64,000 bases of DNA from a virus. Position numbers and translations under genes: made by a program. The notes under the pieces are model-generated. The model worked only from the letters and a program-made list of their open reading frames with translations. It ran no database searches and had not been told where the DNA came from. The DNA lies in IMG/VR virus record IMGVR_UViG_3300047557_003310, positions 62,001-126,000 of that record; one strand, given 5' to 3'. Positions 11,772 through 54,093 of the stretch are shown here, in pieces (position 1 is the first letter of the stretch; every line of letters starts with the position of its first letter).

Positions 11772-12194
11772 ATGTCAGAAGAATCAATAAAATTAGCGGT
11801 ATTAGAGCAAAAACTTTTAGATTTTTCTAACATCGTACATAAGTTAGATGATGCCATTCAAAAGTTGAGTGAAGTAAATACGAATATAACCAGAATGCTT
11901 GCTGTTCATGATGAAAGAATTGAACAGTGCAATAAATCTGATAGTATTCTAATAAAAATGATAGATGAAATCAAGAAAGAAAATCTTGAAGATCACCAAC
12001 AAGTAATAAAAAGAATAGAATCCATAGAAGAAAAAGTATTGGAAATTAATAAAATAAAGTGGATGACTGCAGGATGTGGGACTCTTCTTGTTGTTCTTGC
12101 TGCGGCCTTATCTAGCTTAGCTTCTGGTTGGTGGACGCCAAGTGAAATGCAGCAACACCACAGAATGCAGATGGAATCCAAAATGTTGGATTGA
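11772..12194 (+). CDS. Coiled-coil protein with C-terminal membrane helix
   Basis: 140 residues. Heptad-like helices fill residues 5-90; one hydrophobic segment (GTLLVVLAAALSSLASG) spans about 102-118. The architecture resembles XhlA-type phage membrane proteins and some holin partners, but there is no sequence motif proving it. The last codons carry the -35 box of the primase promoter. Confidence 0.65.
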   Translation: MSEESIKLAVLEQKLLDFSNIVHKLDDAIQKLSEVNTNITRMLAVHDERIEQCNKSDSILIKMIDEIKKENLEDHQQVIKRIESIEEKVLEINKIKWMTAGCGTLLVVLAAALSSLASGWWTPSEMQQHHRMQMESKMLD

Positions 12195-12219
12195 CATACT
12201 GGGATTTACATGCTAGAAT
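12191..12219 (+). promoter_or_regulatory. Sigma70 promoter for primase and nrdA
   Basis: TTGACA, 17 bases, TAGAAT. The -35 box overlaps the stop codon of the preceding gene. The predicted start is about 15 bases before the gp61 ATG. Confidence 0.75.
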
Positions 12220-12241
12220 TGGGGACGCTGAAACCTAGATT

Positions 12242-13216
12242 ATGGATTTGATTGACGACAAATATATTAATCTAATATCAACAAGATTAGAAAAATTCAC
12301 TAAAAAGAATTCAAATCTCTATAATTGTAGATGTAAAATTTGTGGTGACTCTCAGAAAAATAAATCAAGAGCACGAGGATATTTTTATTCTGTAAAAAAT
12401 AATACAAATTACAAGTGTCACAATTGTGGAGTGAATGTATCTTTAAACAATTATCTTAAACAAATAGATCCAATATTACACCAGCAATATTGTTTAGAGA
12501 AGTATTCAGCTGGATTCACCGGTAAAAATTTTACAGCCGAAGCACCAAAGTTTGACTTCAAAAAACCAGTATTCAAAAAAACTTTAAATTTACCAAGAGC
12601 AAGTGAAGTTTCTGTTGCTAAGTCTTATTTAGAAAATCGTAAATTGAATCCAGATAATTTTTATTATGCGGAAAAGTTTAAAGAATGGACAAATACAGTA
12701 CAAAAAACATTTGATGAAAAAGGTTTAAAGTATGAAGAATCTAGGATTGTCATTCCACTTTATTATCAAAAAAAACTAATAGGATTTCAGGGCAGATCAA
12801 TTGGTCCAAGTGAAATTAAGTATATTACAATTATGTTGGAGGAAGATGCTCCAAAGATATATGGATATGATGAAATAAACTTGAACAAATCAGTTTACAT
12901 TATAGAAGGTCCTTTTGACTCCACATTTATTCAAAATTCAGTTGCAATGTGTGGATCCGATTTAAATCTAAAAGATCTAAATATTTCTCACCCAGTATAC
13001 GTCTATGATAATGAACCTAGAAACCAAGAAATTCACAAAAGAATGGAATCTAGAATTGAATCTGGGGATTCAATTGTGATATGGCCAAGTTTAATTAAAG
13101 ACAAAGACATAAACGACATGGTTTTGTCTGGACTTAATGTCCAATCTGTGATAGAATCAAATACTTACTCTGGACTAGTAGCAAAACTTAAATTTAACGA
13201 ATGGAAGAAAGTATGA
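12242..13216 (+). CDS. 61: DNA primase (gp61)
   Basis: 324 residues. Makes RNA primers for lagging-strand synthesis with gp41. An N-terminal zinc finger is visible as CRCKICGD ... YKCHNCG (about 30-64). The Toprim segment IIEGPFDSTFIQ (about 220-231) carries the conserved Glu, followed by PVYVYDNEPRN with the acidic residues. The stop overlaps the nrdA ATG (ATGA). Confidence 0.93.
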   Translation: MDLIDDKYINLISTRLEKFTKKNSNLYNCRCKICGDSQKNKSRARGYFYSVKNNTNYKCHNCGVNVSLNNYLKQIDPILHQQYCLEKYSAGFTGKNFTAEAPKFDFKKPVFKKTLNLPRASEVSVAKSYLENRKLNPDNFYYAEKFKEWTNTVQKTFDEKGLKYEESRIVIPLYYQKKLIGFQGRSIGPSEIKYITIMLEEDAPKIYGYDEINLNKSVYIIEGPFDSTFIQNSVAMCGSDLNLKDLNISHPVYVYDNEPRNQEIHKRMESRIESGDSIVIWPSLIKDKDINDMVLSGLNVQSVIESNTYSGLVAKLKFNEWKKV

Positions 13217-14889
13217 CCGAAGGAATTAGGGTTCAAAAAAGAAATGGCAACATTGAACCATTATATCTTGATAAGATACATTTGATGGTAGAAGAGGCTT
13301 GTAAGAATCTATCTGGAGTCTCTGCTTCTCAAGTTGAAATGCAGTCTGGTATTCAATTTTATAGTGGAATCACTACAGCTGAGATTCAGGAAATTCTAAT
13401 TAGAAGTGCAAGTGATCTTATTGATTTGGAGCACCCAAACTATCAATATGTTGCTGCTAGATTGTTGATGTATGCTACTAGGAAGAGCATCTTTGGTGGC
13501 ATGAAAGATCTACCACACCTAGAAGATCATATCAATAATTGCGTGACTTCTAAAGTATATGATCATGAAGTATATGATCATTATTCAAAAGAAGAAATCG
13601 ATAAGATCAATTCTATGATTGATCACGATCGTGACTTTAACTTCACATATGCAGGACTCAGACAGGTTGTAGATAAGTATTTGGTTCAAGATCGTAGTAC
13701 TGGGAAATTATATGAAACTCCCCAGTTCATGTATATCATGATTGCGCTAACAATGTTTTCTAGGTATCCAAAGGAAACACGCCTATCTTATATAAAAAAA
13801 TATTACGATGCAACATCAAAGCACAAAATCAACATCCCAACCCCAATCATGGCAGGAGTGCGGACGCCACTTCGACAATTTGCTAGTTGTGTTCTTGTTG
13901 ATGTTGATGACACCCTCGATTCTATCTTTAGCAGTGATATGGCTATTGGCAGATATGTCGCACAGAGGGCGGGAATCGGCATCAATGCAGGTAGAATCCG
14001 TGGCATCAACAGTAAAATCAGAGGTGGAGAAGTTCAACACACTGGTGTTGTACCGTTTCTCAAAAAGTTTGAAGCGACTGTCAGATGTTGCACGCAAAAT
14101 GGCATACGAGGTGGATCCGCGACGGTCCACTTCCCCATCTGGCACCAAGAGATAGAAGATATTATTGTTTTGAAGAATAATAAAGGAACTGAGGATAATC
14201 GTGTTCGTAAACTAGATTATTCTATTCAGTTTAGTAAGATTTTTTATGAGAGGTTCATCAAAAATGAAGAAATCACGCTTTTCTCTCCAAACGATGTACC
14301 TGGACTTTATGATAACTTCGGATTACCTACATTTGATGACCTCTATGTATCTTATGAAAATAATCCATCTATTCCAAAGAAAAAAATCAAAGCACAAGAA
14401 CTTATTCTGAATGTTCTCAAGGAAAGAGCAGAAACAGGACGAGTGTATATTATGAACATTGATCATTGTAATTCACATAGTTCTTATAAAGATCAAATTA
14501 CAATGAGTAATCTTTGCGTTGCTGGAGACACAAAGATTAAAGTAAGAATTACTACTGCTAAAGAAGTTGATGGTAATAACACAACAACATACCGTCTTCC
14601 TCCTCTTGAAATTGAAATTCAACAACTTCAAGAATTTATCGAAGAAGGTCTTTCATTGGAATGCGTAGAAGTGCTTTCTAAAAATATTGACTGTGCAAAT
14701 CGTAAAAATGATTATCATCAAATTACCGCATTTGCTCAAACGTCACCTAAAGCAAAAGTAATGAAAATTACTGATGAAAACAGTGGTAACAGTATTGTAG
14801 TCACGCCTGAACACAAAGTATTTACTGAAAATCGTGGATATGTGATGGCGAAAGATTTGAAAGAGACTGATGAGTTAGTAATTAATTAG
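13213..14889 (+). CDS. nrdA: Ribonucleotide reductase alpha subunit, N-part fused to split-intein N-half
   Basis: 558 residues: about 434 of class Ia NrdA followed by 124 of intein. The NrdA part starts with an ATP-cone-like segment (MTEGIRVQKRNGNIEPLYL) and runs to SNL, directly before the conserved Cys of the SNLC motif. The intein starts at Cys (CVAGDTKIKV) and has block B as VVTPEHKVF. Translation then stops. The rest of nrdA is in a second gene 750 bases downstream, so an active reductase should need protein trans-splicing. The ATG at 13213 overlaps the primase stop; an in-frame ATG at 13201 is less likely. Confidence 0.92.
   Translation: MTEGIRVQKRNGNIEPLYLDKIHLMVEEACKNLSGVSASQVEMQSGIQFYSGITTAEIQEILIRSASDLIDLEHPNYQYVAARLLMYATRKSIFGGMKDLPHLEDHINNCVTSKVYDHEVYDHYSKEEIDKINSMIDHDRDFNFTYAGLRQVVDKYLVQDRSTGKLYETPQFMYIMIALTMFSRYPKETRLSYIKKYYDATSKHKINIPTPIMAGVRTPLRQFASCVLVDVDDTLDSIFSSDMAIGRYVAQRAGIGINAGRIRGINSKIRGGEVQHTGVVPFLKKFEATVRCCTQNGIRGGSATVHFPIWHQEIEDIIVLKNNKGTEDNRVRKLDYSIQFSKIFYERFIKNEEITLFSPNDVPGLYDNFGLPTFDDLYVSYENNPSIPKKKIKAQELILNVLKERAETGRVYIMNIDHCNSHSSYKDQITMSNLCVAGDTKIKVRITTAKEVDGNNTTTYRLPPLEIEIQQLQEFIEEGLSLECVEVLSKNIDCANRKNDYHQITAFAQTSPKAKVMKITDENSGNSIVVTPEHKVFTENRGYVMAKDLKETDELVIN
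14515..14886 (+). other. Split intein, N-terminal half (in nrdA)
   Basis: 124 codons starting with the splice-junction Cys (14515-14517). Block A is CVAGDTKI and block B is TPEHKVFTENRG with the TxxH pattern. It ends in a stop after LKETDELVIN, where a continuous intein would carry on. Confidence 0.9.
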
Positions 14890-14894
14890 TATGG

Positions 14895-14948
14895 TAGGAA
14901 GTGTAATTTTGTTATTTTTGATAAATAGTCATGAGATTACACTTCCTA
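14895..14948 (+). promoter_or_regulatory. Inverted repeat with late promoter in its loop, before the GIY-YIG gene
   Basis: A perfect 13-base inverted repeat: TAGGAAGTGTAAT at 14895-14907 and its complement at 14936-14948. The 28-base loop holds GATAAATA (14920-14927), a T4-like late -10 element. The 3' arm ends 2 bases before the ATG at 14951. Long transcripts from upstream can fold and hide the start; a late transcript starting near 14933 lacks the 5' arm. Confidence 0.75.
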
Positions 14949-14950
14949 TA

Positions 14951-15652
14951 ATGAAAACATATATTGTCTATAAAATTACCAATAAGAAAAACGGCAAAAA
15001 TTACATAGGAAAAACTGAATACTCTTTGGAGCATCGTTGGAATCGTCATTTATCGTCAGCAAGAAATGGTTCAAAATTTAGATTTCATTCTGCGATTAGA
15101 AAATATGGTGAAGATTGTTGGGACTTATCTGTGATTGAAACTTATCAAACTGAAGATGAAAACTTTATTAATGAAAAGGAAACTCACTTCATTAAACTCT
15201 TTGAGAGCGATACTAAAGGATATAATGCTACTTCTGGTGGAACTGGTGGTTGGATGCTCCCAAGATGCCCACAGAAAGTCCAGGAAGAGTGGAAAAATGG
15301 TATTTCTACAAGAACTATAGGACACAATAATCCAAATTATTCTGGTTATTCAGATGAAGAATTAATTGAATTTGGTATGAAATTTATTAAAAAATATAAC
15401 TTTATACCTGGACTAAAAAGATTAATTAAATTTTGTAATGACGAGTTGAATGTAAATTTTCCTAAAAGTTTTTCCAAAAATAGATTTGGAGGAAGTAGAA
15501 AAAATTACACTAAATTATTAGAAGAAGAAAGTGGATTGGTATTTGATCCAAATTATAGAACAGTAGAAGAAAGAAAGCTTATTGCCCAAAAGGCATCTAT
15601 AAACTCAACTATTATGTGGAAACAAAGGAGAATTAAAAATGCTAAAGATTGA
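14951..15652 (+). CDS. Free-standing GIY-YIG homing endonuclease between intein halves
   Basis: 233 residues from ATG 14951. The N-terminal nuclease domain shows YIVYKITN and NYIGKTE, the GIY and YIG strands, then the catalytic Arg region (LEHRWNRHL) and a Glu in the INEKETHFI segment. The C-terminal basic part probably binds DNA. Lying exactly between the two halves of a split intein in nrdA, it most likely cuts intein-free nrdA and spreads the interruption. It overlaps the next ORF by 14 bases. Upstream in-frame ATG 14891 is rejected because it lies before the regulatory hairpin. Confidence 0.9.
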   Translation: MKTYIVYKITNKKNGKNYIGKTEYSLEHRWNRHLSSARNGSKFRFHSAIRKYGEDCWDLSVIETYQTEDENFINEKETHFIKLFESDTKGYNATSGGTGGWMLPRCPQKVQEEWKNGISTRTIGHNNPNYSGYSDEELIEFGMKFIKKYNFIPGLKRLIKFCNDELNVNFPKSFSKNRFGGSRKNYTKLLEEESGLVFDPNYRTVEERKLIAQKASINSTIMWKQRRIKNAKD

Positions 15653-15737
15653 ATATCTAGAAGAAGAAATTCCAGTTTATGATATTACGGTAGAAGGAGC
15701 TCATAATTTTTTTGCTAATAATATATTAGTTCATAAT
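15639..15737 (+). other. Split intein, C-terminal half
   Basis: 33 codons ending NILVHN followed by Cys at 15738, the standard C-terminal splice junction (Asn cyclisation, +1 nucleophile Cys). The short length fits natural split inteins, whose C-halves are about 35 residues. Confidence 0.9.
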
Positions 15738-16739
15738 TGTCAAGAAATCACTGAACCTACTACTCCAATTCAACATATTGATGATGACAATTATTCCGAG
15801 ATCGCAACTTGCATTCTTTCTGCGATCAATGTGGGTAGAGTTAAGTCTGATGATGAACTAGAGGAACTCTGTGATCTTACGGTTCGTGCTCTAGATGAAA
15901 TTATTGATTATCAACAATATCCAGTGAAAGCGGCAGAGAATTTCACAAAGCGTCGTAGATCTCTTGGAATTGGATATATTGGTCTTGCTCACTATTTGGC
16001 AAAACTTGGATTTAAGTATGATTCACAAGAAGCATGGGATGCTGTTCATGGTCTTTCTGAGAGCTTCCAATACTATCTTCTAAAGGCATCTAATCAACTT
16101 GCCAAAGAAAAAGGATATTGTGAGTATTTTGGTCGTACTAAGTATTCTGATGGGATTTTACCAATTGATACATACAAAAAAGAAGTAGACGAAATCACAT
16201 CAATTAAACTTCAACATGATTGGGAATCTCTTAGGTCATCTATCCTGGAACATGGACTCAGACACTCAACACTGTCCGCACAGATGCCATCGGAGAGCAG
16301 TTCCGTTGTGTCAAACGCAACCAATGGAATCGAACCACCTAGAGGATACTTGTCCATTAAAAAATCAAAGAAAGGACCACTCAAACAAATTGTTCCACAA
16401 TATCATACTCTTAAAAACAATTATACGCTACTTTGGGACATGGAGTCTAATCGTGGTTATATTAATGTTGTTTCTGTGATGCAAAAGTTCTTTGATCAGG
16501 CAATTTCTGGAAATTGGTCCTATAATCCAGAGCATTATCCAGACAATGAGGTTCCAGTTTCTGTAATGGCGAATGACCTATTGACCACATACAAGTACGG
16601 TCACAAAACCGCATATTATCAAAATACTTATGATATCAAGACCGATGAGGTAGTTGAACATCCAAAACAGGAACTTAATTCGCTTTTAGATGACATTATG
16701 AGTTCAGATGAAAGTGAATGTGAAAGTTGCACAGTTTAA
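15639..16739 (+). CDS. nrdA: Split-intein C-half fused to ribonucleotide reductase alpha, C-part
   Basis: 366 residues: 33 of intein then 333 of NrdA. The intein C-half has block F (VYDITVEGAHNFF) and ends in the canonical HN before Cys. The extein resumes with CQEITEPTTPI, matching the class I motif after SNL, and ends in CESC, the C-terminal Cys pair that glutaredoxin reduces. N- and C-exteins total about 767 residues, a full-length NrdA. AAAGGAG lies 8 bases before ATG 15639, giving it independent translation. Confidence 0.92.
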   Translation: MLKIEYLEEEIPVYDITVEGAHNFFANNILVHNCQEITEPTTPIQHIDDDNYSEIATCILSAINVGRVKSDDELEELCDLTVRALDEIIDYQQYPVKAAENFTKRRRSLGIGYIGLAHYLAKLGFKYDSQEAWDAVHGLSESFQYYLLKASNQLAKEKGYCEYFGRTKYSDGILPIDTYKKEVDEITSIKLQHDWESLRSSILEHGLRHSTLSAQMPSESSSVVSNATNGIEPPRGYLSIKKSKKGPLKQIVPQYHTLKNNYTLLWDMESNRGYINVVSVMQKFFDQAISGNWSYNPEHYPDNEVPVSVMANDLLTTYKYGHKTAYYQNTYDIKTDEVVEHPKQELNSLLDDIMSSDESECESCTV

Positions 16740-16772
16740 TTTGTTTAAATAATCAATGTGATGGAGACTAGT

Positions 16773-17951
16773 ATGGAATTTAAAATTTCTTCAGTTGAAG
16801 AAGAAACTAAAATTAAAGGTATGACTGTTTTTAATACAGAAAAAGTTAATACGAAAAAACAACCAATGTTTTTTGGTCAGCCATTAGGAGTTCAAAGATA
16901 TGATTCATACAAGTATCCAGTTTTTGATAGACTCACCACACAACAACTAGGTTATTTCTGGAGACCCGAAGAGGTCTCTCTCCAAAAAGATCGTGGTGAC
17001 TATCATACTCTTCGTCCTGAACAGAAACATATCTATACTTCTAATTTGAAGTATCAGATCATGTTAGATTCTGTTCAAGGTCGTGGACCTGGTATGGCAT
17101 TTATTCCATATTGTTCACTTCCTGAGTTGGAAGCATGTATGGAAGTATGGGGGTTCATGGAGATGATTCATAGTCGCTCATACACATACATTATTAAAAA
17201 TGTATATTCAGACCCAACAGAGGTCTTTGATACTATTATCGGTGACGAACGCATTCTAGAGCGTGCTAGGAGCGTCACAGAGTCTTATGATGATTTTATT
17301 AATTCAGCACAAATTTATGGTACATCTACTGATTGGATGTATAGACTTGAAGGAGTCACAAACGCAAAGGAAACACTCAACGATGTTAAACGAAAACTCT
17401 ACAGAGCAGTCGCAAATGTTAATATTCTTGAAGGTATTCGCTTCTACATTAGCTTTGCTTGTAGTTTCGCTTTTGGCGAACTTAAGCTCATGGAAGGATC
17501 CGCTAAAATCATCTCACTTATTGCAAGAGACGAAAACCAACACTTAGCACTTACTCAAAACATTCTGAATAAATGGAAAGAAGGTGACGATCCAGAAATG
17601 CAAAAAATTGCAAAAGAAGAGGAAGAATGGGTTTATAAAATGTTTGATCGTGCCGTAAACGAAGAAAAGAAGTGGGCAGATTATCTGTTCAAGGATGGCA
17701 GCATGATCGGACTTAACGATAAACTTCTTCAGCAATATGTTGAATGGATTGCAAATCGTCGCATGAAAGCAATTGGTCTTAAGCCAGTTTATGATATTCC
17801 AGCAAAAAACAATCCACTTCCTTGGACCGAACATTGGATTTCTTCCAAAGGACTACAAGTCGCTCCACAAGAAACGGAGCAGGAAACATATATTGTCGGT
17901 GGACTGAAACAAGACATGAAAGAAGATACATTTGCTAGCTTCAAATTGTAA
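16773..17951 (+). CDS. nrdB: Ribonucleotide reductase beta subunit
   Basis: 392 residues. Carries the diiron-tyrosyl radical that starts ribonucleotide reduction in NrdA. Diiron ligand segments are visible: ELEACMEVWGFMEMIHS and DENQHLALTQN. The start at 16773 has TGGAG 6 bases upstream; in-frame ATG 16761 is possible. It follows nrdA by 33 bases. Confidence 0.95.
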   Translation: MEFKISSVEEETKIKGMTVFNTEKVNTKKQPMFFGQPLGVQRYDSYKYPVFDRLTTQQLGYFWRPEEVSLQKDRGDYHTLRPEQKHIYTSNLKYQIMLDSVQGRGPGMAFIPYCSLPELEACMEVWGFMEMIHSRSYTYIIKNVYSDPTEVFDTIIGDERILERARSVTESYDDFINSAQIYGTSTDWMYRLEGVTNAKETLNDVKRKLYRAVANVNILEGIRFYISFACSFAFGELKLMEGSAKIISLIARDENQHLALTQNILNKWKEGDDPEMQKIAKEEEEWVYKMFDRAVNEEKKWADYLFKDGSMIGLNDKLLQQYVEWIANRRMKAIGLKPVYDIPAKNNPLPWTEHWISSKGLQVAPQETEQETYIVGGLKQDMKEDTFASFKL

Positions 17952-17955
17952 TTTA

Positions 17956-18005
17956 AAACTGAGGTTGAATGTTATATAAATAAATATAACATTCAACCTC
18001 AGTTT
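17956..18005 (+). promoter_or_regulatory. 22-bp perfect inverted repeat with central late promoter
   Basis: The arms are 17956-17977 and 17984-18005, perfect over 22 bases with a 6-base loop. TATAAATA at 17975-17982 covers the apex. The 3' arm ends 3 bases before the endonuclease ATG at 18009. As RNA this hairpin would shut the start codon and might also end nrdB transcripts; a late transcript would begin near 17988, inside the 3' arm, and escape it. Confidence 0.85.
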
Positions 18006-18008
18006 CAA

Positions 18009-18527
18009 ATGGATAATTATATTCTTTATTATTATTTAAGGGAGGACTTTAGTTCTCCCTTTTATGTTGGTTATGGTAAACCAAGAAGAATACACGCAAA
18101 GCATTTGAGAAGTAATGGGGCAAATCTATTGCCATCAAGAGAAAGAAGATGGATCGTAAAATCTGGATTAACTAAACAAGAAGCAATAGAACTTGAAGTA
18201 AAGCACATAGCACTTTGGAAAAGAGAATGTGATGGTGGAGTTTTATTAAATCAAAATCTTGGTGGAGAAGGAAAACCAGGAGGACAAAAAACTAAAGGAT
18301 TTAGTGGTAGAAAACATAGCGAAGAAAGTAAAAAGAAAACTTCATTAAAAGTTGCTGGTAAAAATAATCCAAGAGCAAAGAAATATATCTTCATTTCTCC
18401 AGATGGTAAAAAATACATTATAGAAGGTGGTGTTAAAAAGTTTTGTAAAGAAATAGGAATAACTTATGATGCGGTTTTAGGAAAGAAGAGCAAGAATACA
18501 AAAGGTTGGACTATATTAAACGCATAA
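18009..18527 (+). CDS. Homing endonuclease-like protein (degenerate GIY-YIG, NUMOD DNA-binding)
   Basis: 172 residues. YILYYYL ... PFYVGYGKP reads as a divergent GIY-YIG pair, followed by an Arg-rich helix and ELEVKHIALW with the expected Glu. SGRKHSEESKKKTS is a NUMOD3-type DNA-binding module. The end (ISPDGKKYIIEGGVKKFCK ... KGW) is like the C-terminal helix-turn modules of GIY-YIG endonucleases. It separates nrdB from a head-like gene, and its start lies directly behind the inverted repeat. Confidence 0.8.
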   Translation: MDNYILYYYLREDFSSPFYVGYGKPRRIHAKHLRSNGANLLPSRERRWIVKSGLTKQEAIELEVKHIALWKRECDGGVLLNQNLGGEGKPGGQKTKGFSGRKHSEESKKKTSLKVAGKNNPRAKKYIFISPDGKKYIIEGGVKKFCKEIGITYDAVLGKKSKNTKGWTILNA

Positions 18528-18579
18528 GCTCCCTTTTTTAATAAATATATAAAGACAAACAAGAATTTTTTGTATAACA

Positions 18580-19809
18580 ATGTCAAAATACTACTTAACA
18601 GAAGCTTACGGTGAGCTATATAACCCAAGAAAAGCTGATGAGACATTCTATGAGAATCTAAGATTCGTAGATTATCTCATGCAAGAAGAGATTGAGGAAG
18701 TCATGGAATCTCTTCTCTGGGAATTTATGGATTATGGTAATAATCTTGATGAATCTTATGGTTTGATCAAAGGTGTATTTTCTGATGATGTGATTCTAGA
18801 AGAAGTATTAACTGAAGCTAGAATGACTCCAAGACAAAAGGAAGAAAGAGCGGCACGCCAGAGAAGTAATTTGCAACTAGCTGCTGGTCAAGAAGCAACT
18901 AAAAGAAGAGAAGCTAGAAAGGCTGCTGTAACTGGAGCACTCAAACAAGCCAGGGAAACCGTAGGAAAAGTAGCTTCTGGTGTAGGATCTTCTGCTATGG
19001 GAGCGATGAGATCTGGTAAAAAGGCTGCTGCTGGCGCATATGATCGTGCTAAGGGTCTTCCTGGTAAAGCCATGGCTGCTCTTAAAGGACTTGCTCGTAA
19101 AGGTGCAGCTGCAGCTATTAAATCAGGTAGATCAACCGAAAGAGCAGGAAAAGAAGCAGAAAGAACTACAGTAACTACAACTTCCACTTCTGGTGGTGGT
19201 CGTGGCGCAGCTCCATCCACTCAAACTACAGTAGAAAAGTCAGGTGGATCTAAGCGTAGAGCAATTGGTGGGTTACTACAAAGAGCTGGAAAGGCACTTG
19301 CTGGGAAACTAAAAGCCAAACCAGATCGTATGACCAGAGGTGAATACGAAGAAAGAAAAGCTGGTAGAGCTGCTGCTGCCAGATCTGCTGTTGCTGGTAC
19401 TGTCTCATCTACAGCACCAAAACCAGAAGCTAAAAAGCCTGAGCTTGGATTTAAGAAATTAGAAGCATCTGGTCAAAAGCCAGTATACAACCCAGCTGCA
19501 GCAAATCGTAGCGAAAAGAAAAGAACAGGTGGAAAACTTCCTGCTTCTAGTGCTTTGACTCCCTGGAATAAAGGTCCAGATAAGAGCGGAAAGAAATCTA
19601 CTGCTCCTAGTACAATTCAGGCAGAAAGAAGAAAGCAAATTAAATTAGCACGCACACAGAGAGAAGAATTTGAACTTCTAGCACAATATATCCTAGAAGA
19701 CTTTATCAATGAAGGTTATGCTGATACTTATGAGGATGCACTTGAAATTCTAGAAAATCTTTCAGAAAATTCTATTATAGAACTTACTGAAATGTATCTA
19801 GAAGGCTGA
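18580..19809 (+). CDS. Putative internal head or scaffold-like protein
   Basis: 409 residues. An acidic helical N-terminus (to about 85) leads to a long Ala/Arg/Lys-rich basic region (85-350), then a C-terminal helical domain (EFELLAQYILEDFINEGYAD ... LSENSII). That end resembles the last 45 residues of the protein at 41464, marking a shared module. Late-type AATAAATA (18540-18547) is upstream. Probable head-interior protein; no T4 counterpart named. Confidence 0.65.
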   Translation: MSKYYLTEAYGELYNPRKADETFYENLRFVDYLMQEEIEEVMESLLWEFMDYGNNLDESYGLIKGVFSDDVILEEVLTEARMTPRQKEERAARQRSNLQLAAGQEATKRREARKAAVTGALKQARETVGKVASGVGSSAMGAMRSGKKAAAGAYDRAKGLPGKAMAALKGLARKGAAAAIKSGRSTERAGKEAERTTVTTTSTSGGGRGAAPSTQTTVEKSGGSKRRAIGGLLQRAGKALAGKLKAKPDRMTRGEYEERKAGRAAAARSAVAGTVSSTAPKPEAKKPELGFKKLEASGQKPVYNPAAANRSEKKRTGGKLPASSALTPWNKGPDKSGKKSTAPSTIQAERRKQIKLARTQREEFELLAQYILEDFINEGYADTYEDALEILENLSENSIIELTEMYLEG

Positions 19810-44138: not shown

Positions 44139-44181
44139 AACCTGTTGTTTTATAAATAGTATAAGATAATAACAACAGGTT
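44139..44181 (+). promoter_or_regulatory. Inverted repeat with late promoter, before HNH gene
   Basis: AACCTGTTGTT (44139-44149) and AACAACAGGTT (44171-44181), perfect over 11 bases. TATAAATA (44151-44158) is in the loop. The 3' arm touches the ATG at 44182. Confidence 0.8.
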
Positions 44182-44568
44182 ATGACAAAAGGCAGAAAAA
44201 AAGGACTGTGTATAAAAACTTACATTGCTCGTCCTGATGGAACAGTTTGGTCGCAAACCAAATATAAATGTACTAAACTAAATCCATCAAAACATTATAA
44301 AAAAGAATATTTACAGTTTGATATGTTTATTGATGGAAAGAGAGTTAATAAACAGGTACATAGATTTATAGCAGAACAATTGCTACCAAATCCAGATCCA
44401 GAAAACTTAACTGTTGTTGATCATATCAATAGAAATAGAACTGATAATAGATTAGAAAATTTAAGATGGTCAACGAGACAAGATAATTGGTATAACTTTG
44501 AACTTTCTATTGAAAAATCTATTGAAACATTAGAAAGAGCGGGTTATACTATAATACCCCCTCAATAA
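44182..44568 (+). CDS. HNH homing endonuclease
   Basis: 128 residues. KQVHRFIAEQLLP, VVDHINRNRTDNRLENLRW is the HNH_3 signature with the catalytic DH, N and N residues. A short N-terminal beta part (ARPDGTVWSQTKYK) leads in. Inserted between hli and the peroxiredoxin gene. Confidence 0.92.
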   Translation: MTKGRKKGLCIKTYIARPDGTVWSQTKYKCTKLNPSKHYKKEYLQFDMFIDGKRVNKQVHRFIAEQLLPNPDPENLTVVDHINRNRTDNRLENLRWSTRQDNWYNFELSIEKSIETLERAGYTIIPPQ

Positions 44569-52203: not shown

Positions 52204-52818
52204 ATGAATGTGAAATATACTGAGGACGATAAAAAACTTTGGGAGAAAATGTATTTGTCTGGTCTTTCTTCTTATGAGATTTCCAGACAATTAAAAGTTC
52301 CAAAACCAACGGTATATAAACACATAAAATCTTGTGATATTTCTAGAAATTGGTCGGAATGGCAAATAGGAAAAGAACCTTGGAATAAGGGAGTAAAAGG
52401 AGCACAAGTATCTTGGAATAAAGGATTAACCAAAGAAACTGATGAAAGAGTTAGAAAATATGGTGAAAAGTTAAAAGGAAATAACTATCAAAATCCTTGG
52501 AGCAAAAGATATTTCGATGTGGATTATTTGTATTTGGTTATTGTTTATCTTGAGGGTAAATTGGTTTATAAGGTGGGTAGAAGTTTTAATAAGTTATCAA
52601 ACCACACTAAAAATAAATTACATAGTGTAATTAAAATATGGAAAGGAATACATTATCAAGTACATCACCTTGAAAAGTTCATTCATCAAAAATATCAAGA
52701 TTATAAAATTGATTTTGAGACCACGGACAGTGGATATACGGAGTGTTATGTGGTAGAATTACCCATAACTGAAATCATCAACCTTACAGAAAAAACATTA
52801 AAACATTATGATTACTAA
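52204..52818 (+). CDS. Homing endonuclease-like protein downstream of psbA
   Basis: 204 residues. N-terminal helix-turn-helix (SGLSSYEISRQLKVPKPTVY, about 19-38), NUMOD3-like PWNKGVKG/SWNKGLTKETDERV, then LYLVIVYLEGKLVYKVGRS, which resembles the T5orf172 branch of the GIY-YIG fold. As with the S-PM2 psbA endonuclease (recalled), it may cut intronless psbA and help move the introns. Confidence 0.75.
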   Translation: MNVKYTEDDKKLWEKMYLSGLSSYEISRQLKVPKPTVYKHIKSCDISRNWSEWQIGKEPWNKGVKGAQVSWNKGLTKETDERVRKYGEKLKGNNYQNPWSKRYFDVDYLYLVIVYLEGKLVYKVGRSFNKLSNHTKNKLHSVIKIWKGIHYQVHHLEKFIHQKYQDYKIDFETTDSGYTECYVVELPITEIINLTEKTLKHYDY

Positions 52819-53031: not shown

Positions 53032-54093
53032 ATGACTTCTTCAACTCTTACAAAACCTATTCAACAAAGGGGGTGGTTTGATGTCTTGGACGACTGGGTT
53101 AAACGAGATCGTTTCATATTCGTTGGCTGGTCTGGACTTCTTCTTTTTCCCACTGCTTATCTTGCTCTTGGTGGTTGGCTTACTGGGACAACTTTCGTTA
53201 CGAGTTGGTACACTCACGGCTTGGCAAGTTCCTATCTGGAGGGTGCAAACTTTCTTACTGCGGCAGTTAGTACTCCAGCAGATGCTATGGGTCATTCTCT
53301 TCTGCTTCTCTGGGGTCCTGAGGCTCAAGGGGATATCGTCAGGTGGTTCCAACTTGGGGGACTCTGGCCTTTTGTGGCGCTCCACGGCGCTTTCAGCCTG
53401 ATTGGATTCATGCTTCGTCAGTTTGAGATTGCTCGTCTAGTCGGTATCAGACCCTACAATGCAATTGCATTTTCTGGTCCTATCGCAGTCTTTGTTTCTG
53501 TATTCCTGATGTATCCTCTGGGACAATCCAGTTGGTTCTTTGCTCCATCTTTTGGAGTAGCAGCAATCTTCAGGTTCCTTTTATTCCTTCAGGGTTTCCA
53601 CAACTGGACCCTGAACCCCTTCCACATGATGGGAGTTGCTGGTATACTGGGAGGAGCACTGCTCTGTGCGATTCACGGAGCAACTGTAGAAAACACTCTA
53701 TTTGAAGATGGACAACAAGCAAATACATTCAAAGCATTTGAACCAACTCAAGAGGAAGAGACCTACTCAATGGTTACGGCTAACAGATTCTGGTCTCAGA
53801 TCTTCGGTATTGCTTTTAGTAATAAGCGTTGGTTGCACTTTTTTATGCTTTTCGTACCAGTTATGGGTCTCTGGACTTCTTCTATTGGTATCATCGGTCT
53901 TGCTCTCAACCTACGTGCATACGACTTTGTATCTCAGGAAATTAGAGCGGCGGAGGACCCAGAGTTTGAGACGTTCTACACGAAGAATATCTTACTTAAT
54001 GAAGGTCTTAGAGCGTGGATGGCACCAGTAGATCAACCTCATGAGCAGTTTGTATTTCCAGAAGAGGTTCTACCTCGTGGAAATGCCTTGTGA
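53032..54093 (+). CDS. psbD: Photosystem II D2 protein
   Basis: 353 residues, full length, uninterrupted. [19 protein letters not shown] and [17 protein letters not shown] are D2 signatures. Forms the photosystem II reaction centre with D1. Confidence 0.98.

What the first reader, a model, noticed from the sequence alone, without database searches (positions are those of the whole stretch)
13213..16739. Fractured nrdA: split intein halves with a GIY-YIG gene between them
NrdA stops after intein-N (Cys1, TxxH block). A separate ORF starts with a 33-residue intein-C ending HN-C and completes NrdA. The gap holds a GIY-YIG endonuclease. Both exteins together equal a full NrdA, so DNA synthesis should depend on trans-splicing. 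The site lies directly before a conserved active-site Cys. Fractured genes are known from metagenomes; this is one in genomic context with its endonuclease regulation visible.
Basis: partly seen in the sequence, partly recalled or inferred. Interest (0 to 1): 0.9.

Follow-up and report, generated by a model that had tools for sequence, protein, structure and literature searches.

The report
Broken nrdA gene mended by trans-splicing
In an uncultured T4-like cyanophage the gene for a key DNA-building enzyme is broken in two by a DNA-cutting "homing" gene, with a split self-splicing protein tag on each half that should rejoin them; related phages show the same site empty, with the tag unbroken, and with it broken, which makes the origin of split inteins testable.

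Summary
Confirmed. NrdA stops after intein-N (14515-14886). A second ORF begins with a 33-residue intein-C (15639-15737) and completes NrdA. A GIY-YIG gene (14951-15652) lies between. All class-1 splicing residues are intact, and the +1 Cys is E. coli NrdA C439. The 132.8-kb viral contig holds no other nrdA, but is probably incomplete. The arrangement is a known kind ("fractured gene", Dassa 2009); a GIY-YIG example in an RNR gene is published (AceL NrdHF).

New here: (1) 55 distinct fractured nrdA sequences in viral contigs share the site, split point and endonuclease family, while the closest relative of the window's nrdA (88% nt) has an empty site. (2) At least 14 distinct unbroken versions of the intein sit at the same site. 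One broken/unbroken pair shares 355 of 356 nt, and cassettes 99.7% identical sit in inteins 66% identical. So a mobile endonuclease cassette probably breaks cis-inteins repeatedly. (3) The cassette carries a conserved hairpin with the phage late promoter in its loop, and the C-half has its own ribosome-binding site inside the endonuclease gene. Cultured Yersinia phage TG1 has an HNH counterpart. Trans-splicing and cleavage remain untested.

The parts
13213..14514 (+). NrdA N-extein (alternative start 13201); ATP cone, all-alpha domain, first half of the barrel; ends SNL
14515..14889 (+). Intein-N (124 aa: Cys1, TPEH block) and stop TAG 14887-14889
   Evidence: unbroken homologue folds as an intein
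14894..14949 (+). RNA hairpin (arms 14894-14912 and 14931-14949) ending just before the endonuclease ATG; -24.2 kcal/mol, z -4.1; covarying in relatives
14920..14927 (+). Late-promoter-like GATAAATA (cyanophage late consensus NATAAATA) in the hairpin loop, 30 nt before the start codon
   Evidence: consensus from PMC2984593
14951..15652 (+). GIY-YIG homing endonuclease (233 aa), catalytic domain like I-TevI, own C-terminal domain
   Evidence: dN/dS 0.09-0.15
15625..15630 (+). Shine-Dalgarno AAGGAG for the C-half ORF, inside the endonuclease coding sequence
15639..15737 (+). Intein-C (33 aa, ends HN), overlaps the end of the endonuclease ORF by 14 nt
15738..16739 (+). NrdA C-extein, starts with the C439-equivalent, ends with a CESC tail
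16758..17951 (+). nrdB, RNR small subunit, uninterrupted

Best explanation
This is a fractured nrdA: a natural class-1 split intein whose halves are attached to the two halves of the phage RNR large subunit, broken by a mobile cassette [hairpin + late promoter + GIY-YIG gene]. Proposed working: (1) an early/middle nrd transcript carries both halves. The N-half is made from the nrdA start and the C-half from its own Shine-Dalgarno inside the endonuclease gene, while the hairpin silences the endonuclease. (2) The intein halves associate and trans-splice, joining SNL to Cys439 and giving a normal 767-aa NrdA; without splicing C439 stays tied to the intein and the enzyme should be dead. (3) Late in infection the NATAAATA promoter in the hairpin loop starts a transcript that lacks the 5' arm, so the endonuclease is made, cuts alleles lacking it in co-infecting phages, and is copied with its intein. 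(4) On an evolutionary scale the cassette enters unbroken (cis) versions of the same intein and converts them to split ones, or the whole element moves into empty nrdA. Anatomy, conservation, the cis/split/empty series and past transfers are shown by sequence. Splicing, promoter timing, hairpin repression and cleavage are inferred.
For: Split-intein residues intact in 61/61 distinct inteins. A profile of unbroken homologues best matches the NrdJ-1 split-intein fusion, E 3.9e-26; fold model pLDDT 90.6 with the same top PDB hit. +1 Cys = C439. Intein-C dN/dS 0-0.04, endonuclease 0.09-0.15. Hairpin with the late-promoter motif in its loop upstream of the endonuclease in the distinct fractured loci listed; 96% of cells paired versus 42-50% when slid, 3 pairs changed on both sides. 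ATAAATA lies upstream of 16 of 66 window ORFs against 4.0 expected from shuffles, mostly 27-34 nt before the start; here 30. A predicted late transcript lacks the structure, -1.7 kcal/mol. C-half SD -6.6 to -11.4 kcal/mol in 54 loci, endonuclease start about -2.6. Sister nrdA L005 is empty; at least 12 forced changes of the fractured state on the extein tree. Cassette 99.7% identical between L151 and L096 with intein-N 66%, exteins 76/71%; L012/L018 share intein-N 97.8% with exteins 76-77%. L108: intein-N 355/356 nt identical to unbroken L126, N-extein 95.7% to L126 and C-extein 95.5% to unbroken L004, but cassette nearest to another fractured locus.
Against: No splicing, cleavage or RNA data. 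The extein co-conversion signal is weak and only on the 5' side. The endonuclease start lacks a clear SD even without the hairpin, unlike T4 I-TevI. The L108-type mosaics could also arise by recombination in the reverse direction or in more than one step. The endonuclease model is of moderate confidence (pLDDT 72).
Confidence: 0.85

Rival explanations
1. Genes-in-pieces without splicing, as in Aeromonas phage Aeh1: the two NrdA polypeptides assemble non-covalently and the intein remnants are relics.
For: Aeh1 nrdA split by mobE works as two polypeptides (PMC2988022, PMC10448857).
Against: Both intein halves keep every splicing residue in 61/61 sequences and intein-C is under very strong selection. 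The break is directly before catalytic C439, so an unspliced C-half would carry 33 foreign residues on it. Unbroken cis forms exist that must splice to give NrdA.
Confidence: 0.06
2. The break is removed at RNA level (group I intron) or by frameshift, not by protein splicing.
For: Introns are common in phage RNR genes (PMC3653736).
Against: No intron family match in Rfam at E<=0.1 in 12000-19000. Both flanks encode conserved intein halves; the unbroken homologues are in-frame inteins.
Confidence: 0.02
3. The hairpin is an RNA-processing site or terminator rather than a translational switch.
For: RNase E processing of T4 segB/segG transcripts is reported (PMC2988022). The endonuclease start lacks an SD to sequester.
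Against: No U-run follows the stem. The late-promoter motif lies in the loop in all these loci; 43 of 44 distinct ORFs after such hairpins in the fetched loci look like homing endonucleases (classes partly judged by eye); the three such hairpins in the window each precede an endonuclease gene.
Confidence: 0.15
4. The unbroken inteins are products of precise cassette loss, i.e. split to cis is the main direction.
For: Counts of changes on a tree do not give direction.
Against: Linker sequence (NEKTSTLI.EYLEE) is shared by cis inteins with very different N-parts. Fractured L108 is flanked on both sides by sequence nearest to cis copies while its cassette is nearest to another fractured locus.
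Confidence: 0.2

Closest known systems
Fractured genes with split inteins (Dassa et al. 2009, gkp095; cited in PMC3653736, PMC7090010)
   Same: Conserved phage DNA-metabolism gene broken by a split intein with a free-standing endonuclease gene between; intein-interrupted nrdA from ocean metagenomes reported (7 nrdA, per PMC3653736)
   Different: The paper is not held here, so sequence identity with those loci was not tested. Unbroken counterparts, cassette transfers, a cultured HNH counterpart and tree context are added here
AceL NrdHF split intein (PMC7891396)
   Same: RNR gene in fractured organisation with an intervening GIY-YIG endonuclease; splicing shown biochemically
   Different: Small-subunit gene, class-3 intein (Ala1), 98+48 aa; here large subunit, class-1, 124+33 aa
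NrdJ-1 and gp41-1 split inteins
   Same: Closest solved structures among phage split inteins by profile and fold
   Different: Other host genes; about 32% and 26% identity in the structural alignments
Yersinia phage vB_YenM_TG1 nrdA (KP202158)
   Same: Same site before C439, homologous split intein, same 14-nt overlap of stop and start, hairpin with TATAAATA in the loop
   Different: HNH instead of GIY-YIG endonuclease, and an SD lies in the hairpin's 3' arm
I-TevI / segB / Aeh1 mobE hairpin-regulated endonucleases
   Same: Late promoter plus hairpin absent from late transcripts (PMC2988022)
   Different: No obvious SD at the window endonuclease start; sits in a split intein, not an intron or spacer

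Membership tests
Fractured gene (Dassa type) | One conserved enzyme gene in two ORFs, together full length | tested here: met
Fractured gene (Dassa type) | Split-intein halves at the break | tested here: met
Fractured gene (Dassa type) | Free-standing endonuclease gene between the halves | tested here: met
Class-1 split intein | Cys1, TxxH, penultimate His, terminal Asn, nucleophile at +1 | tested here: met
Class-1 split intein | Trans-splicing activity | not testable with these tools
   needs co-expression
GIY-YIG homing endonuclease | GIY-YIG domain | tested here: met
   Pfam 3.3e-12; I-TevI catalytic domain by profile and fold
GIY-YIG homing endonuclease | Site-specific cleavage of the allele lacking it, leading to homing | not testable with these tools
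   only past transfer shown
T4-type hairpin/late-promoter control of endonucleases | Late promoter placed so that late RNA lacks a start-blocking hairpin | tested here: met
   sequence layout and folding only:
T4-type hairpin/late-promoter control of endonucleases | Shine-Dalgarno sequestered in the stem | tested here: not met
   no SD at the endonuclease start; the stem ends next to the start codon
Group I intron | Match to an intron covariance model | tested here: not met

The most novel reading that the evidence does not exclude
Split inteins in phage nrdA are made repeatedly in nature when a hairpin-controlled endonuclease cassette invades unbroken inteins, so cis and trans forms of one intein interconvert within a phage population, and different nuclease families (GIY-YIG, HNH) use the same intein break point with the same control logic.
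Probability: 0.6. Interest if true: 0.72.

Novelty: new member of a known kind. Interest (0 to 1): 0.6.

Why it matters
How split inteins arise has been inferred mostly from isolated examples. Here one site holds empty, unbroken and broken alleles of the same intein, including a broken/unbroken pair differing at 1 of 356 intein-N positions, so breakage can be replayed and tested. It also shows a selfish gene held inside an essential catalytic site, apparently controlled so that it does not disturb the enzyme early in infection, and supplies many natural split inteins that may be useful for protein ligation. A hairpin with the late promoter in its loop looks like a marker of endonuclease genes in these phages.

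Tried and rejected
Group I intron at the site: no Rfam match. Second intact nrdA: none in the record. Shared tail between the GIY-YIG and TG1 HNH endonucleases: collinear but weak (hhalign probability 38%, P 3e-4), left as suggestive. Extein co-conversion: only a small 5' effect. Whole-window count of ATAAATA: not above chance; only its position relative to ORF starts is informative. Close relatives of the TG1 HNH gene in viral contigs: none beyond TG1 itself; none in plasmids. Dassa 2009 and Carvajal-Vallejos 2012 could not be read.

Full report
WHAT IS THERE. The window is positions 62001-126000 of a 132,824-base IMG/VR virus record. It resembles T4-like cyanophages: best nrdA hits are Synechococcus phages and it carries psbA. 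nrdA is in two ORFs. The first (from 13201 or 13213) encodes 438/434 extein residues ending SNL, then 124 residues of intein-N with Cys1 and TPEH, then TAG. The second (15639-16739) begins with 33 residues of intein-C ending VHN and continues CQEITEP through the CESC tail. A GIY-YIG gene (14951-15652) lies between. The record holds no other nrdA, but is probably an incomplete genome. In the alignment of the uninterrupted relative L005 to E. coli NrdA, the SNLC Cys falls, by my count, at chain residue 458 of 8vhp, which with the tag offset of 19 is C439, the thiyl-radical residue. So one Cys is both splicing nucleophile and RNR catalyst (roles from established knowledge).

INTEIN. All 61 distinct inteins of the first set keep Cys1, TPxH, VYDIT, HN and +1 Cys. 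A profile of unbroken homologues matches the NrdJ-1 split-intein structure at 3.9e-26 and gp41-1 at 4e-9. The AlphaFold model of the unbroken L004 homologue (pLDDT 90.6) has the same best fold match. In the pairs compared, dN/dS is 0-0.04 for intein-C, 0.2-0.5 for intein-N, whose middle is variable, and 0.09-0.15 for the endonuclease.

HOW WIDESPREAD. Searches with intein-N and endonuclease gave 138 and 83 related places in viral contigs. Those fetched reduce to 55 distinct fractured and 6 distinct unbroken insertions at the same site; a further search raised the unbroken ones to at least 14. The places that encode the endonuclease have nrdA sequence beside them wherever enough flank is held. 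In 50,697 phage records this intein-N is matched only in Yersinia phage TG1. TG1 has a homologous split intein before C439, the same 14-nt overlap of stop and start, and an HNH gene between. Klebsiella phage KP13-7 has a split intein one codon further on with a related GIY-YIG and hairpin, and a second split intein with an HNH gene.

MOBILITY. The nearest relative of the window's nrdA, L005, is empty at exactly this site (exteins 88% nt identical). On the C-extein tree the fractured state changes at least 12 times on well-supported branches. L151 and L096 share the cassette plus intein-C at 99.7/97.9% while intein-N is 66% and exteins 71-76% identical: the cassette moved without intein-N. L012 and L018 share intein-N (97.8%) and cassette (93%) with exteins 76-77%: the whole element moved. 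The co-conversion signal in exteins is weak.

BREAKING OF AN INTEIN. On the intein-N tree unbroken and broken forms alternate at least four times. Four intein-N alleles have broken and unbroken copies at 91-98% nt identity. In the closest pair, L126 (unbroken) and L108 (broken), 355 of the first 356 nt are identical; then the end of intein-N, the hairpin, the endonuclease and the start of intein-C replace the linker. L108's N-extein is nearest to unbroken L126 (95.7%), its C-extein to unbroken L004 (95.5%), its cassette to fractured L143 (93.7%). The simplest reading is that a cassette from elsewhere entered a cis-intein nrdA; direction is inferred, not proven.

CONTROL. Upstream of the endonuclease the distinct fractured loci carry a hairpin whose loop holds the late promoter motif. 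In 16 representative sequences 96% of cells pair, versus 42-50% when slid, with 3 pairs changed on both sides. NATAAATA is the cyanophage late promoter (PMC2984593). In the window ATAAATA precedes 16 of 66 ORFs against 4.0 expected from shuffled upstream sequence, mostly at 27-34 nt; for the endonuclease it is 30. RNA through the element folds at -24.2 kcal/mol (z -4.1); RNA starting inside the loop does not (-1.7). This is the logic described for I-TevI, segB and Aeh1 mobE (PMC2988022), except that no SD is sequestered: the endonuclease start has none. The C-half ORF has a GGAG-type SD in the 54 loci examined, and the endonuclease stop lies inside intein-C coding in 54 of 54. So both NrdA halves can be made while the endonuclease is silent. 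Two other hairpins of this type in the window precede a second GIY-YIG/NUMOD3-type gene after nrdB and an HNH gene. Across the fetched loci 43 of 44 distinct ORFs after such hairpins look like homing endonucleases; these loci are centred on nrdA, so the figure may not hold elsewhere.

COMPARISON. Fractured genes with split inteins were described from ocean metagenomes in 2009; that paper is not held here and is known to me through citing papers and memory. A fractured nrdHF with GIY-YIG and demonstrated splicing is published (PMC7891396). The locus is therefore a new member of a known kind. What adds interest is the allelic series and the evidence for repeated breaking. Splicing, cleavage and expression timing remain to be tested.

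Noticed in passing
window 17957-18006 and 18009-18527: Second GIY-YIG/NUMOD3-type gene right after nrdB, preceded by a 20-bp perfect hairpin with ATAAATA in the loop (z -8.9); Rfam scores it, by chance, as microRNA precursors.
   Followed up: partly
window 44139-44181 and 44182-44568: Third hairpin with ATAAATA in the loop, preceding an HNH_3 endonuclease gene.
   Followed up: partly
window 52204-52818 and 53032-54093: Endonuclease-like ORF directly before psbA (photosystem II D1), with ATAAATA upstream of both.
   Followed up: no
L222 (Klebsiella phage KP13-7) 1653-7183: nrdA in four coding pieces: an apparent gap with an HNH gene, a split intein with GIY-YIG, and a second split intein with an HNH gene; would need two trans-splicing reactions.
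   Followed up: partly
L225 4262-5312, L126, L233, L236: Unbroken-intein nrdA genes carry another insertion with a GIY-YIG/NUMOD3-type ORF about 15 codons after C439; nature of the insertion unresolved (no Rfam match in L225 or L236).
   Followed up: partly
L240 3821-4267: Distant RNR gene with an intein broken by stops and a new start but no endonuclease between: possibly a split intein that lost its endonuclease.
   Followed up: no
L220 4363-5310 versus window 14951-15649: C-terminal regions of the TG1 HNH and the window GIY-YIG endonuclease align collinearly but weakly; possible shared DNA-binding tail under different nuclease heads.
   Followed up: partly
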